Assembly: GCF_024345415.1 (NCBI RefSeq)
Contig: NZ_JAGQBB010000022.1
Span: 1-38,203 of the forward strand
Source: Synechococcus sp. Tobar12-5m-g
GTDB lineage: Bacteria > Cyanobacteriota > Cyanobacteriia > PCC-6307 > Cyanobiaceae
DNA: 38,203 nucleotides
Direction of reading: 5' to 3'
Shown: positions 8,606-14,558 of the stretch, piece by piece
Layout: every line of letters begins with the position of its first letter
Position numbering within the stretch: the first letter of the stretch is position 1
Notes under the pieces: generated by a model
What the model was told of the DNA's origin: nothing
Databases searched by the model: none
Seen by the model: only the letters and a program-made list of their open reading frames with translations
Translations under genes and position numbers: made by a program

Positions 8606-8944
8606 CTATCCGGGCGGCCAGGCCAGGGGGCGGCCCCCGATCACATGCAGATGGAGATGGAACACGCTCTGGCCGGCCTCGGCGCCCGAGTTGATCACCG
8701 TGCGCCAGGCGTCCAACCCCTCCAGCCGGGCCACCTTGGCCGCCACCAGAAGCAGGTGGCCCAGCAGGGCCTGGTCGGCCTCGCCGGCGTCAGCCAGGTT
8801 CACCAGGGGGTGGCGCGGAATCACCAGGACATGCACCGGCGCCTGGGGCTGCACATCCCGGAAGGCCAGGCAGAGATCGTCGTCGTAGACCTGATCGCAG
8901 GGAATCTCTCCCCGCAAGATGCGCCCGAAGATCGTGGTGGTCAC
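8606..8944 (-). CDS. HIT family protein (HINT-like nucleotide hydrolase)
   Basis: The 112-aa protein shows the histidine-triad active site [10 protein letters not shown] near its C-terminus and the N-terminal block [20 protein letters not shown] typical of HINT/HinT proteins, which hydrolyse purine nucleoside phosphoramidates and acyl-adenylates. It lies upstream of the ABC transporter on the same strand with a 23-bp gap. Its first 31 bp are part of the 100-bp repeat that recurs at 10441 and 14459, which shows it was once divergent from comM. Confidence 0.93.
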
Positions 8945-9013
8945 TGGCGGGGGTGGGACAGGCGGGGAACTGGTGCGGTGTCCCCGGGCGGTTGGTTTGA
9001 TGTTGGCACGGTG
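8914..9013 (+). repeat. 100-bp direct repeat, copy 1 (HIT/comM junction)
   Basis: This copy spans the first 31 bp of the HIT gene, the spacer, and the first 14 bp of a comM-like start (ATG at 9000). It aligns without gaps to 10441-10540 and 14459-14558, with about five mismatches per 100 to each by eye. Here the HIT side is functional and the comM side is a dead end that runs into the hpsJ remnant. Confidence 0.9.
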
Positions 9014-9255
9014 CGGCAGCGCAGGGCATCACCGAGCCGTGCACGCACCTGGCGAACCACTTGGTTGAAGCCATCCGGCAGCTGAGGGGCTGAGATGCAT
9101 GGAAGCTGGAGGATGGCCTGCCTCAGAAGTTGCGGCCTGCGGCCGGCATCCGTCGCAGGCGCTGCGGAGTTGATTTGCGCCCCCGGGGCTGGAGAAGATC
9201 AGCAGGCCAGCACTGGCCTGGAATCGGGAGGGCACGGCTGGCGCCGACAGGAGAT
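9014..9255 (-). pseudogene. Decayed remnant of an hpsJ-like gene
   Basis: On the minus strand this aligns in pieces with the interior of the intact hpsJ-like gene at 10616-11365. The remnant reads RQAILQLPCISAPQLPDGF then [13 protein letters not shown], against RQAILQLPGISAPQLPDRF and PQVRARLSDVLR in the intact copy. Further upstream GANQLRSA is conserved, in a different frame after an internal deletion of about 60 bp. Homology continues to about 9255 at the nucleotide level (matching CGTGC.CT and GATC blocks). The C-terminal 65 or so codons and the N-terminal half are missing. It abuts repeat copy 1. Confidence 0.75.
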
Positions 9256-9399
9256 GCTGAAGTGGAGGCAGCTGATGAAAGGCCTTTGCATCGGCACAGC
9301 GGGCATTGGCATTGACACATCCGCTAAGATTCTAACAAATTGGATGGATACGTTCTTTGGAACGGCTCCAATGCTCGCCATCCCCTGAGGTTCAGGCTC

Positions 9400-10071
9400 A
9401 TGAGCTCCCCATCCTTCATTGGCCTCAAGTCAGCCCTCCCCAGGGTTCTCGTTGGTGCCGCCCTGCTCGGCGGAGCCGGCTCCTTGTTAACGGCTGGCTC
9501 GGCTCGGGCGGCCTGCAATGACGTTGTCCCCTTCAGCGATTGGTCTACCGGCACTGTGCTCACCTGTGACGATAAACAATTTATCTTCACATCATCTTCT
9601 GGTATAACCGATCCTGGGCTTGCAACAGTAACCGCCAGTGGGCTTGGCCAGAACTATGCATTGAATTTGAGTTTTGGGACGTTTGACTCTACTTCTACAT
9701 TTACTCTCAACTACGACGCAATCATCACAGATCCAAGCTTCGCCTTCGAAGCGGTTGCCCTTGACACAGATGTTAATCCTTTTGCTCCTAATGAAGTTCT
9801 GACTGCCACTTTTACGGGATTCTCCCCTCCCGTCGTGCTGACGAGCACCAATGGAACTCCTGACTCAAGCCCAGGAGCAGGTGCGCCGACAATCTTGAAT
9901 GTCGCCAATGTGTACAACTCCAACGGAGGTACTATTTCCAGCGTGACAACCTCTTTCGAACAAGTCCAGCAAGTCCAAGTCCCAGCACCCCTTCCCATCC
10001 TTGGCGCCGGCTTCGCTTTCGGCTTCAGCCGCAAACTTCGCAGCCGCATCAAAACACGCAACCAGGCCTGA
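9400..10071 (+). CDS. PEP-CTERM-type exported protein 1 (cyanoexosortase substrate candidate)
   Basis: The 223-aa protein has a Sec signal peptide (hydrophobic VLVGAALLGGAGSLL, cleavage near AGSARA/AC). Its mature domain is Ser/Thr/Asn-rich and beta-like, starting with a Cys pair in AACNDVV...LTCDD. The C-terminal tripartite sorting signal is a VPAPLPILG motif, a short hydrophobic stretch (AGFAFGF), then a basic tail SRKLRSRIKTR. That tail matches the cyanobacterial PEP-CTERM subclass. The start at 9400 was chosen because it leads straight into the signal peptide; an upstream in-frame start at 9340 adds 20 poor residues. A TTGACA at 9312 may be a -35, but the spacing to any -10 is poor. GC is lower than in neighbouring core genes. 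Confidence 0.85.
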   Translation: MSSPSFIGLKSALPRVLVGAALLGGAGSLLTAGSARAACNDVVPFSDWSTGTVLTCDDKQFIFTSSSGITDPGLATVTASGLGQNYALNLSFGTFDSTSTFTLNYDAIITDPSFAFEAVALDTDVNPFAPNEVLTATFTGFSPPVVLTSTNGTPDSSPGAGAPTILNVANVYNSNGGTISSVTTSFEQVQQVQVPAPLPILGAGFAFGFSRKLRSRIKTRNQA

Positions 10072-12490: not shown

Positions 12491-13195
12491 TTGCGTGATC
12501 CGTACGTTCGAGCCTGCCTAGCCACAGCCGCAGCCACCGTAAGTGTTGGCCTGCTTCAGGTGATCGTTTTCCCCCGCTGGCCAAGGATCAATGCCACCGG
12601 AATCGATCTCTTGGCCCTGCAGGGGAAGCGGGTGGCATCCCATCGCTTGCTGTTGCCCGCACTGGGCTCGGCAACCGTGGCCCAGAGCGCCCTCCATGAG
12701 TTTTCGATTCCACTGGGAACTGTGAAGGAGCCAATACAGCCTGATGCCAGGAGAGACATCCTGCTTCGTATCAGGCTGCTGGAGCCAAGGAACTGGCGCG
12801 CCTTTCAGGTGGCCGATGTCACCGCCGGCATCAGCGCCTTGGAGATTAAGCAGCGGACGCTGAATGTTCTTAATGACGATGAACTGGCCAAGGGACAGAT
12901 CATGGGTAAGCCAGCCTTGCAAACCTGCCTCAGAGAGAAGGGGAATGGAGTTGTCACCCAAAAATCCTTCTTCGCCCTTTCGTTTGAGGAGCCTCTACTC
13001 AGCAGGCAACAACAACTTTTGCGGATACTCGGCTTAAGGCAGAATCGCATCCATCAATGCCTTCTGGTGACGCTACAAGTTCCTCAGAACGAGAAGGATG
13101 CAGCGGCTGAACTGATTAGAACCTGGAAACAGCTACGCCCCAGCCTGGCTGCACACCTCACCAAGATGACACGCAACTCTTCGGCCCTTTTTTAA
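12491..13195 (+). CDS. Cyanoexosortase A system-associated protein
   Basis: The 234-aa product has one N-terminal hydrophobic segment (about residues 8-25) and a soluble, presumably periplasmic domain with the pair LQTCLREKG near residue 146 and NRIHQCLLVTLQVP near 190. This matches the small partner protein that is habitually the next gene after cyanoexosortase A; its biochemical role is unknown. It starts with TTG at 12491, 6 bp after the exosortase stop, with no in-frame ATG before the hydrophobic segment, so translational coupling is likely. Context carries much of the call. Confidence 0.75.
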   Translation: MRDPYVRACLATAAATVSVGLLQVIVFPRWPRINATGIDLLALQGKRVASHRLLLPALGSATVAQSALHEFSIPLGTVKEPIQPDARRDILLRIRLLEPRNWRAFQVADVTAGISALEIKQRTLNVLNDDELAKGQIMGKPALQTCLREKGNGVVTQKSFFALSFEEPLLSRQQQLLRILGLRQNRIHQCLLVTLQVPQNEKDAAAELIRTWKQLRPSLAAHLTKMTRNSSALF

Positions 13196-13679
13196 ATCCA
13201 AGACACAAGGACTTGAGGCGACGTCACTGCTCAGGGGGCAGAGCGGGCCCTGAGCTGACCCGATAACAAGCCAAGGCATCGTTAGCATTTCTGAGGGCGG
13301 CGTGGAGGCAGCACCCCGGTCCGATTGAAATAGTGTTACAACCGCTCGGGCCAGGGCTTTGAGCAATGGGATCGCTTTGCACCTTTCTCTACCGCTCTGC
13401 CAGACTCCGTCTCTGACGCTACCGACCTCGACCAGCTTTGAGGGGCTGCTCCAAAATTGGCCCGATGTAAAAATCGAAGGAATTTACCTTAAGGCCCCAA
13501 GAGCCCTCTGACCGCCGACCAGCTGACCGATGAGCACTGGAAAGCCTGTGCGAACCGATGGATGTGTTGAAATCTAAAAAGAAGGGGGTCAGCAGACCTT
13601 CCGCCTGGGGACATGAAAGAATATAAGCGAGCATATCATCGATTATGATTGAGTGCAATCACTGCATTGGGATAGGCCC
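13196..13679. other. Gene-free stretch upstream of PEP-CTERM gene 2
   Basis: About 480 bp hold only short, unrecognised open frames on both strands and are AT-richer toward the right end. No clear terminator with a T-run follows the associated-protein gene. Part of it (about 13430-13560) reads like decayed coding sequence but matches nothing I can name. Confidence 0.45.
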
Positions 13680-14332
13680 GTGACGACCTCAAGGCGCTCT
13701 TCTCGTAATCATTCTGTTGTACTGCTTTGATCAACAGTGCTGGATTCTTTCTGCACGCAGGCTCTGCCTATGCGGCCTGTGGTAGGCCCATTTCAGTCTC
13801 GAGATGGGCTAGCGGCAATCCCCTGACATGTGACAGCATCGAAGTTACGTACGTTAGCAACACAGCCAATCGAGGCTCAGCGAATGTTGTTGTAAGCTAC
13901 TTATCTGAAAGCTCTTTATTCAACATTCAGTCTGCAGGGCCACCCACTCTAGACTTCGCTCAACTTGCTTACGACGTCACCATTGACCTTGGCAGGTTCT
14001 TTGAAGAAGTTTCTTTAACTAGCAATATAAATCCCTTTTTTGCTTACTCGGTCCTTGATGCAACATTCGAAGGAGGCATGGCTGACATTATTATTCAAAA
14101 TCTCAGTGGTTCAACTTCCGTTTCATCCCCTTTGACAGGGAGCCCGTCATCCTTAACGGTCAACAGCGTCTACACAAGCATCGGAGGACTGAATAGTTCT
14201 ATTACATTTGGCTTCCGACAAGGAACTACACCAGTAAATGTGCCCGCCCCCCTTCCGATTCTTGGTTTAGGCGTAGCTCTTGGCTTTAGCCGCAAGCTAC
14301 GCAACCGTATCAGAACTCGCTATCAGGATTGA
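13680..14332 (+). pseudogene. PEP-CTERM-type exported protein 2, signal peptide broken by a -1 frameshift
   Basis: From 13727 a frame runs to 14332 and ends in VPAPLPILG, a hydrophobic stretch (LGVALGF) and the basic tail SRKLRNRIRTRYQD, nearly the same sorting signal as protein 1. It shares the AAC...LTCD start of the mature domain. Its only in-frame start is a TTG at 13727, giving a stunted signal peptide. In the adjacent frame GTG at 13680 encodes an Arg-rich n-region and the start of the h-region (RRSSRNHSVVLL), then hits TGA at 13728. Adding one T in the CTTTG run fuses the frames into a full signal peptide ending HAGSAYA/AC. This is either a real mutation or a sequencing error. GC is clearly lower than in the core genes. 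Confidence 0.75.
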
Positions 14333-14458
14333 TCCAAATTCGGTTTGATTCTGCTTTCGAGCGCTGAGGTTTTCGAGGACTGACCAATCGCAGCTGAAGC
14401 CTCAGCATCAACGGCTGGCTGCAGGCCGGCATCTTTATGAGCCCCTAATGACACCCCA

Positions 14459-14558
14459 GCAGGATGCGCCCGAAGATCGTGGTGGTCACTGGCAGGGGTG
14501 GGACAGGCGGGGAACTGGTGCGGTGTACCCGGGCGGTTGATCTGATGTTGGCACGGTG
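14459..14558 (+). repeat. 100-bp direct repeat, copy 3 (HIT/comM junction)
   Basis: Right-hand copy: 31 bp of an orphaned HIT 5' end, the spacer, and the real comM start (ATG at 14545). It differs from copy 1 at about five positions by eye. Here the comM side is functional, mirroring copy 1 where the HIT side is, so the island interrupts a formerly contiguous HIT-comM pair. Confidence 0.9.

What the first reader, a model, noticed from the sequence alone, without database searches (positions are those of the whole stretch)
8914..14558. Cyanoexosortase island bounded and split by three direct repeats of the HIT/comM junction
The 100-bp sequence at 8914, 10441 and 14459 is in each case the HIT 5' end plus the spacer plus the comM start. 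HIT keeps its real 5' end in copy 1 and comM keeps its real start in copy 3, so about 5.4 kb was inserted between two former neighbours in such a way that the whole divergent junction was duplicated, while both host genes stayed intact. Copy 2 in the middle defines two units with the same order: junction, hpsJ (minus), then a PEP-CTERM gene (plus). This suggests integration of a circular or tandemly duplicated unit through the junction sequence, a gene-acquisition mode that uses a host promoter region like an attachment site. No integrase or transposase is visible inside.
Basis: partly seen in the sequence, partly recalled or inferred. Interest (0 to 1): 0.82.

Follow-up and report, generated by a model that had tools for sequence, protein, structure and literature searches.

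The report
Twice-copied island between repeated gene junctions
In a freshwater Synechococcus-like bacterium, a small protein-sorting gene set seems to have been inserted between two normally neighbouring genes and then doubled by recombination between the copied gene junctions at its ends, leaving one decayed and one nearly complete copy; unusual to see, but an ordinary kind of genome rearrangement.

Summary
A ~100-bp stretch (31 bp of HIT, the spacer, 14 bp of comM; "J") occurs three times in direct orientation, 92-95% identical, with no fourth copy found in the genome. HIT and comM are divergent neighbours in 14 of 29 relatives' HIT loci and 21 of 23 cyanobacterial comM loci, so ~5.4 kb was inserted with duplication of the junction.

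The two units are homologous at both ends: unit 1 keeps a ~190-bp hpsJ remnant, a related PEP-CTERM gene and a related 3' flank. Simplest history: insertion as J-unit-J, doubling by unequal recombination between J repeats, then deletion of most of hpsJ, the exosortase and its partner from unit 1. In unit 2 the PEP-CTERM gene seems to lack its signal-peptide start. The exosortase was probably acquired horizontally: its best match in 300 family genomes is in another genus.

How the first junction duplication arose is unresolved. An att-like "landing pad" is not supported: no relative with both genes in view carries such cargo, and no tyrosine-integrase match lies on the contig. J cores have diverged less than the units, so conversion, continued constraint or recent inter-strain exchange must have acted.

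The parts
8606..8944 (-). HIT-family gene, complete
   Evidence: Pfam PF01230 4.2e-28
8910..9022 (+). J1: HIT 5' end + spacer + comM start; the HIT side is the complete gene
9020..9209 (-). hpsJ remnant of unit 1; 83% DNA identity over 107 bp to hpsJ of unit 2, then a gapped match (9129-9209)
9400..10071 (+). PEP1: PEP-CTERM-like protein (start taken at ATG 9400) with an apparently complete signal peptide and a C-terminal PAPLPILG...FGFSRKLRSR tail; named PEP-CTERM by eye, no family match
   Evidence: 43% identical to PEP2
10308..10374 (+). 3' flank of unit 1, homologous to 14380-14446 of unit 2
   Evidence: 70% identity over 67 nt, 0 of 300 dinucleotide shuffles as good
10378..10414 (.). 16-bp-stem palindrome between unit 1 and J2; no other place with paired arms seen in the genome; not scored as a terminator
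10437..10586 (+). J2: core to ~10540 plus a more diverged extension into comM codons (8 of 40 sites differ from comM)
10616..11434 (-). hpsJ-like gene (HpsJ_like_A, below curated cut-off)
   Evidence: NF050013 5.7e-15, 55.5 bits vs cut-off 140
11624..12484 (+). exosortase, best named model cyanoexosortase A (below its cut-off); Cys184, Arg230, His256 motifs present
   Evidence: TIGR03763 3.6e-30; TIGR04178 above cut-off; PF09721 6.2e-26; motifs
12491..13195 (+). cyanoexosortase-A-system-associated protein (weak)
   Evidence: TIGR04153 1.8e-4, 21.6 bits vs cut-off 100
13727..14332 (+). PEP2: PEP-CTERM-like protein; in-frame stop just upstream, start region of the signal peptide out of frame, probably damaged
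14380..14446 (+). 3' flank of unit 2, homologous to 10308-10374
14455..14567 (+). J3: HIT 5' fragment + spacer + complete comM start
14545..16101 (+). comM/YifB-family AAA ATPase, complete
   Evidence: TIGR00368 2.3e-163

Best explanation
A horizontally acquired exosortase unit (hpsJ - exosortase - associated protein - PEP-CTERM substrate) was inserted between HIT and comM in an event that duplicated the divergent junction (about 100-165 bp), giving HIT-J-unit-J-comM with both host genes intact [insertion and duplication: shown by comparison with relatives]. Homologous unequal recombination between the two J repeats, within the strain or with DNA of a strain carrying a diverged allele, then doubled the unit to J1-unit1-J2-unit2-J3 [inferred from homology at both unit ends and from the hybrid look of J2]. 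Deletions removed the end of J1, most of hpsJ, the exosortase and its partner from unit 1, leaving PEP1, while unit 2 kept the enzyme set and its PEP2 lost the start of its signal peptide [sequence shown, order inferred], so about one working set may be left. Recombination between any two J copies would delete a unit, and J1 x J3 would restore the empty HIT-comM site [prediction]. The enzyme presumably sorts PEP-CTERM proteins to the cell surface [family knowledge, recalled]. How the first junction duplication arose is open; I think replication- or repair-coupled insertion with a long target duplication, or single-crossover integration of a circle carrying J, most likely.
For: J copies and uniqueness. 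Divergent HIT/comM adjacency: in 14 of 29 relatives' HIT loci comM lies beside HIT (12 with gaps of 140 bp or less, two of about 400 and 870 bp); in the other 15 of 29 comM was not found within the 1.5 kb in view. In 23 cyanobacterial comM loci (L050-L072 of the 80; the other 57, distant by identity and title, were not examined) the gap is 58-147 bp in 19, 360 and 584 bp in two, not measurable in two. The two sets overlap (L015 lies in L050). The nearest relative CS-1325/G003 has a 58-bp gap and one J. Unit homology: hpsJ remnant 83% over 107 bp, PEP genes 43% aa, 3' flank 70% over 67 bp, J2 extension. Foreign origin: lower GC inside (0.49-0.63) than in the flanks (0.61-0.76); the exosortase groups with G102 of another genus (99/99; 60% identity), while of three congeners one has no match and two only 29-38% identical ones; island DNA outside comM/J matched 39 relatives only in three short pieces of G008. 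J2 is nearer J3 in the HIT part (1 vs 2 differences) and nearer J1 in the spacer (3 vs 7), as a J3/J1 hybrid predicts (small numbers).
Against: J cores differ at 5-8% while hpsJ (18 of 107) and the 3' flank (20 of 67) differ more (Fisher p 0.008 against J1/J2 and 0.0003 against J2/J3), so a single old within-strain duplication needs gene conversion or lasting constraint on J2, or the units come from diverged strains. The same contrast within J2 (core 8/100 vs comM extension 8/40 against J3) is not significant (p 0.07). The 5' flanks of PEP1 and PEP2 are not detectably homologous (204 of 300 shuffles as good). The tree flags the congener's exosortase (L004) as a long branch of unsure place. No second genome with the island was found, so order and age of events are not independently tested.
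Confidence: 0.62

Rival explanations
1. Decayed site-specific integrative element (CIME-like): J1, J2, J3 are attL/attI/attR of two elements accreted in tandem at a HIT/comM attB, integrase lost or acting in trans.
For: Direct repeats at both ends and in the middle, host genes restored, no mobility gene recognised; tandem accretion of decayed elements is described (PMC5704250, passages). Six tyrosine-recombinase matches (five over the cut-off) exist elsewhere in the genome.
Against: No tyrosine-integrase match on contig C15; repeats are ~100-150 bp and span two 5' gene ends and the spacer; no inverted repeat of 12 bp or more in J at the settings used; no such cargo at this site in the relatives with both genes in view; the units look like diverged copies of one another, not two different elements.
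Confidence: 0.13
2. Repeated uptake: diverged J-flanked exosortase cassettes circulate among strains and were added one after the other by homologous recombination at J (natural transformation or circle integration).
For: J cores are much more alike than the units, as expected if units diverged in different strains before being joined; tandem duplication through alternative pairing of repeats during transformation is documented in pneumococcus (PMC3784515, abstract and model section).
Against: No other genome with a J-flanked cassette was found among three congeners and 23 comM loci; conspecific strains could not be searched; gene conversion or constraint on J explains the same contrast.
Confidence: 0.15
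3. Intrachromosomal origin: tandem duplication of a resident segment reaching from an exosortase locus to comM, followed by deletion of the redundant part, left the exosortase genes between HIT and comM.
For: In G126 an exosortase locus lies about 20 kb from the HIT/comM junction in the same relative orientation, and the window's left flank is syntenic with part of the stretch between them.
Against: The window's exosortase groups with G102, not with G126; elsewhere the distance is about 230-260 kb (G114, G197, G220) or over 1 Mb (G087, G162, G227) (coordinates); only one exosortase gene matched in the own genome at E 0.001.
Confidence: 0.07

Closest known systems
Tandem duplication by unequal crossing-over between direct repeats (e.g. 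transformation-triggered merodiploids, PMC3784515)
   Same: A unit bounded by homologous direct repeats is doubled, leaving a repeat between the copies; expected to collapse again.
   Different: Pneumococcal duplications are ~100-900 kb and the repeats shown are incomplete IS861 copies (abstract); here the unit is a few kb and the repeat is a copied host gene junction.
CIMEs / tandem accretion of decayed integrative elements (PMC5704250, passages seen)
   Same: Att-like repeats at the ends and between two units, host gene end restored, no integrase recognised inside.
   Different: No integrase-bearing relative or att core identified; units are homologous copies; target is a divergent gene junction.
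ssrA-specific genomic islands of Dehalococcoides (PMC3146451, abstract and outline seen)
   Same: Cargo islands inserted at one housekeeping locus.
   Different: 31 islands at one site there, 16 with an integration module; here one genome and no module.
Cyanoexosortase A / PEP-CTERM systems with HpsJ-like partners (NCBIfam TIGR03763, TIGR04153, NF050013)
   Same: Gene content like that of an exosortase with its associated protein, HpsJ-like partner and substrates.
   Different: All three named models score below their curated cut-offs; located outside an exopolysaccharide locus, unlike the nearest relative in G102 (locus judged by eye).

Membership tests
Exosortase family (Exosortase_EpsH) | Family model above cut-off; conserved Cys, Arg, His | tested here: met
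   PF09721 91.7 bits vs 25.7; TIGR04178 48.7 vs 23; CTGYE, NTFRIAL, FFHDGE motifs (catalytic roles recalled)
Cyanoexosortase A sensu NCBIfam | TIGR03763 above its curated cut-off | tested here: not met
   105.3 bits vs 150; best named model, but not above cut-off
Insertion between former neighbours with junction duplication | Empty site in relatives; repeat equals the site sequence | tested here: met
Tandem duplication via flanking repeats | Units homologous at both ends; a repeat at each boundary | tested here: met
CIME / integrative element remnant | Integrase in the element or in a relative using the same att site | tested here: not met
   No PF00589 match on contig C15; none of the island proteins scanned matches a recombinase; no relative with such cargo among those with both genes in view; serine recombinases and transposases were not sought genome-wide
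CIME / integrative element remnant | att core with recombinase-binding inverted repeats | tested here: inconclusive
   No inverted repeat of 12 nt or more in J; shorter arms not tested
Circular intermediate (Campbell-type integration) | Junction reads or PCR product of a J-closed circle | not testable with these tools
   No reads available

The most novel reading that the evidence does not exclude
The HIT/comM junction is a population-level landing pad: diverged exosortase cassettes, each closed by a copy of this junction, move between strains as circles or transforming DNA, insert by homology into the junction without harming HIT or comM, pile up in tandem and leave precisely by junction x junction recombination, i.e. 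gene mobility that uses a host promoter region as its only 'att' sequence and needs no integrase.
Probability: 0.1. Interest if true: 0.65.

Novelty: new member of a known kind. Interest (0 to 1): 0.38.

Why it matters
It is a clear snapshot of a probably foreign gene set entering the junction between two housekeeping genes, doubling by repeat recombination and then decaying differently in the two copies. It gives a testable prediction (exact loss by J x J recombination) and shows how a sorting enzyme and an intact substrate gene can end up on different copies. If the landing-pad reading held, integrase-free cassette exchange at a host promoter would become testable in freshwater picocyanobacteria.

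Tried and rejected
A recombinase inside the island: no recombinase match among the island proteins scanned; the gap 13196-13726 has no match elsewhere in the genome better than E 0.21, and its six-frame pieces were only inspected by eye. Phage or plasmid origin: no viral contig encodes a relative of the exosortase, no plasmid match; the 8 phage records matched only the comM part of the query (query 6176 onward). Repeats at other exosortase loci: none of 50 bp or more at 80% or more, at least 300 bp apart, in 16 loci (300,799 bases), and two unrelated pairs in 23 comM loci (L059, L061). Junction duplication as a general habit of this genome: in 437,838 bases (20 stretches with overlaps, the window and L137) the only direct pairs within a stretch above 80% are those of this locus; five other pairs were 65-77%. 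Four relatives with wider HIT-comM gaps (L032, L034, L058, L067) show no duplicated junction. Promoter scan: 2 sigma-70-like sites against 2.8 expected, none in J; 10 terminator-like sites against 5.7 expected, the palindrome at 10378 not among them. Literature: the listings showed no title or abstract start that describes this site; some listings were cut to 8 of more papers and only three papers were opened.

Limits: the 196-nt search of 400 family genomes scored few places per genome, did not list all matches, and missed the own J2 that one search shows, so it cannot exclude second J copies; in the five genomes where I could read both pieces (G209, G211, G280, G383, G395) the HIT and comM sides stand 80-130 nt apart. 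One genome per species is held, so conspecific strains could not be compared. The 300 and 400 family genomes were an even draw from a larger group.

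Full report
WHAT IS THERE. The window (contig C15 of a 2.95-Mb draft genome, 38,203 bases) holds three direct copies of a HIT/comM junction sequence, J, at 8910-9022, 10437-10549 and 14455-14567. The 100-bp core is 31 bp of HIT, a 55-bp spacer and 14 bp of comM; J1 and J2 differ at 5 sites, J1 and J3 at 5, J2 and J3 at 8. 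No other copy was found in the genome. J2 runs further into comM codons, to 10586 at least.

EMPTY SITE. In the nearest relative searched, Synechococcus sp. CS-1325 (the G003 locus L015 lies letter for letter in it), HIT and comM are divergent with a 58-bp gap and a single J at 90% identity. Of 29 relatives' HIT loci, 14 have comM beside HIT in this arrangement (12 at gaps of 140 bp or less, two with about 400 and 870 bp) and in 15 comM was not found within the 1.5 kb in view. Of 23 cyanobacterial comM loci (of 80 returned), 19 have a gap of 58-147 bp, two 360 and 584 bp, two could not be measured. The two sets overlap. None of those with both genes in view has exosortase, HpsJ or PEP-CTERM matches between HIT and comM, and the four wider gaps carry no duplicated junction. 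So the window carries an insertion of about 5.4 kb with duplication of the junction.

TWO HOMOLOGOUS UNITS. Unit 2 (J2 to J3) holds hpsJ (-), an exosortase, its associated protein and PEP2 (+). Unit 1 (J1 to J2) holds an hpsJ remnant from 9020 to about 9209 (83% over the first 107 bp) and PEP1, 43% identical to PEP2. Downstream of each PEP gene, a 67-bp stretch matches at 70% (0 of 300 shuffles as good) before the next J. The units are therefore related at both ends, with the middle of unit 1 missing; the 5' flanks of the two PEP genes are not detectably related (204 of 300 shuffles as good). This is the signature of a doubled unit rather than of two separate cargoes.

STATE OF THE GENES. The exosortase matches Exosortase_EpsH (PF09721, 6.2e-26) and the general exosortase/archaeosortase signature above cut-off, while cyanoexosortase A, HpsJ_like_A and the associated-protein model score below theirs. 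PEP1 and PEP2 match no family model and are named from their C-terminal tails. The three catalytic motifs are present (roles recalled). PEP1 has an apparently complete signal peptide; PEP2 has a stop just upstream of its hydrophobic segment and a basic start lies in another frame, so PEP2 is probably damaged or starts at TTG 13727. By similarity to PEP1 only these two and one weak tail on contig C19 were found, a search that can miss other PEP-CTERM proteins.

ORIGIN. GC falls from 0.61-0.76 outside to 0.49-0.63 inside. The exosortase groups with that of G102, another genus of the family (60% identity, 99/99 support), not with the congener G003 (38%), whose row is however flagged as a long branch. 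In G102 the gene stands in what looks, by eye from the translations, like an exopolysaccharide locus. 40 of 300 family genomes, the own one included, have an exosortase match at 1e-20. Island DNA outside comM/J matched the 39 other genomes only in three short pieces of G008. No viral contig or plasmid relative was found.

TIMING AND THE CORE. Fourfold-degenerate sites of HIT (63) and comM (293) differ by 32% from CS-1325, while J differs by about 10%, so J seems constrained where it serves two genes. J2 serves neither, yet its core is nearly as conserved as the others; hpsJ (18 of 107) and the 3' flank (20 of 67) have diverged more (p 0.008 and 0.0003). Three readings fit: gene conversion among the J copies, a continuing function of J2, or a recent joining of units that had diverged in different strains. 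The contrast inside J2 between core and comM extension points the same way but is not significant (p 0.07). These counts come from short alignments.

MECHANISM. The doubling is best explained by unequal homologous recombination between the flanking J repeats. J2 is nearer J3 in its HIT part and nearer J1 in its spacer, as a hybrid would be, on few sites. Transformation can trigger such duplications in pneumococcus (PMC3784515: abstract and model section read). The first junction duplication could come from repair- or replication-coupled insertion with a long target duplication, from a circle carrying J, or from a lost recombinase. No tyrosine-recombinase match lies on this contig, although six (five over the cut-off) occur in the genome. 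Tandem accretion of decayed integrative elements (CIMEs) is a known look-alike (PMC5704250, passages), but its defining integrase or att evidence is missing here.

HOW SPECIAL. A sample of 437,838 bases of this genome (overlaps and the window included) shows no other comparable repeat pair, and 16 other exosortase loci show none. The site is thus singular in the data seen, which speaks against a general landing pad and limits what one genome can tell. Second J copies in wider relatives are not excluded, because the family-wide DNA search also missed the own J2.

VERDICT. Observation confirmed and extended; interpretation partly supported. A real, cleanly readable rearrangement of a known kind at a site I did not find described in the listings searched, with an open first step.

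Noticed in passing
L057:6180-7361 (Synechococcus sp. ATX 2A4): A PEP-CTERM-like gene sits next to the ABC transporter gene, about 2.3 kb from HIT, in a relative whose HIT/comM junction is empty; no direct repeats of 35 nt or more around it.
   Followed up: partly
L061:11625-11918, 13203-13524, 13650-13779: Repeated element just downstream of comM with AGCCTGTTGCGC...GCGCAACAGGCT-type inverted ends in a MAG; looks like a MITE-type element, not a junction copy.
   Followed up: partly
window 10378-10414: Near-perfect 16-bp-stem palindrome between unit 1 and J2 (fold z-score -2.65), not scored as a terminator; with up to 2 mismatches its arm occurs at two other places, no more than the reversed control.
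   Followed up: partly
window 14544-14555 and comM starts of 9 relatives: The comM start reads GATGTTGGCACG in 8 of 9 relatives aligned (the ninth has one change) although synonymous codons would allow more variation; possibly an initiation or regulatory constraint.
   Followed up: no
G126:C1:2253520-2275056; also G114, G197, G220: An exosortase locus lies about 20 kb from HIT/comM in G126 and about 230-260 kb away in three genomes of another genus, in the same relative orientation in these four; in G087, G162 and G227 it is over 1 Mb away, in G227 on the other strand (coordinates).
   Followed up: partly
G000:C19:14538-14624 (L132, L137): Weak third PEP-CTERM-like tail in the same genome (48% over 29 aa, E 0.008), a possible further exosortase substrate.
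   Followed up: no
G000 contigs C33, C27, C23, C12, C34, C19: Six tyrosine-recombinase matches in the genome (five over the cut-off), some close to contig ends; none on the window's contig.
   Followed up: no
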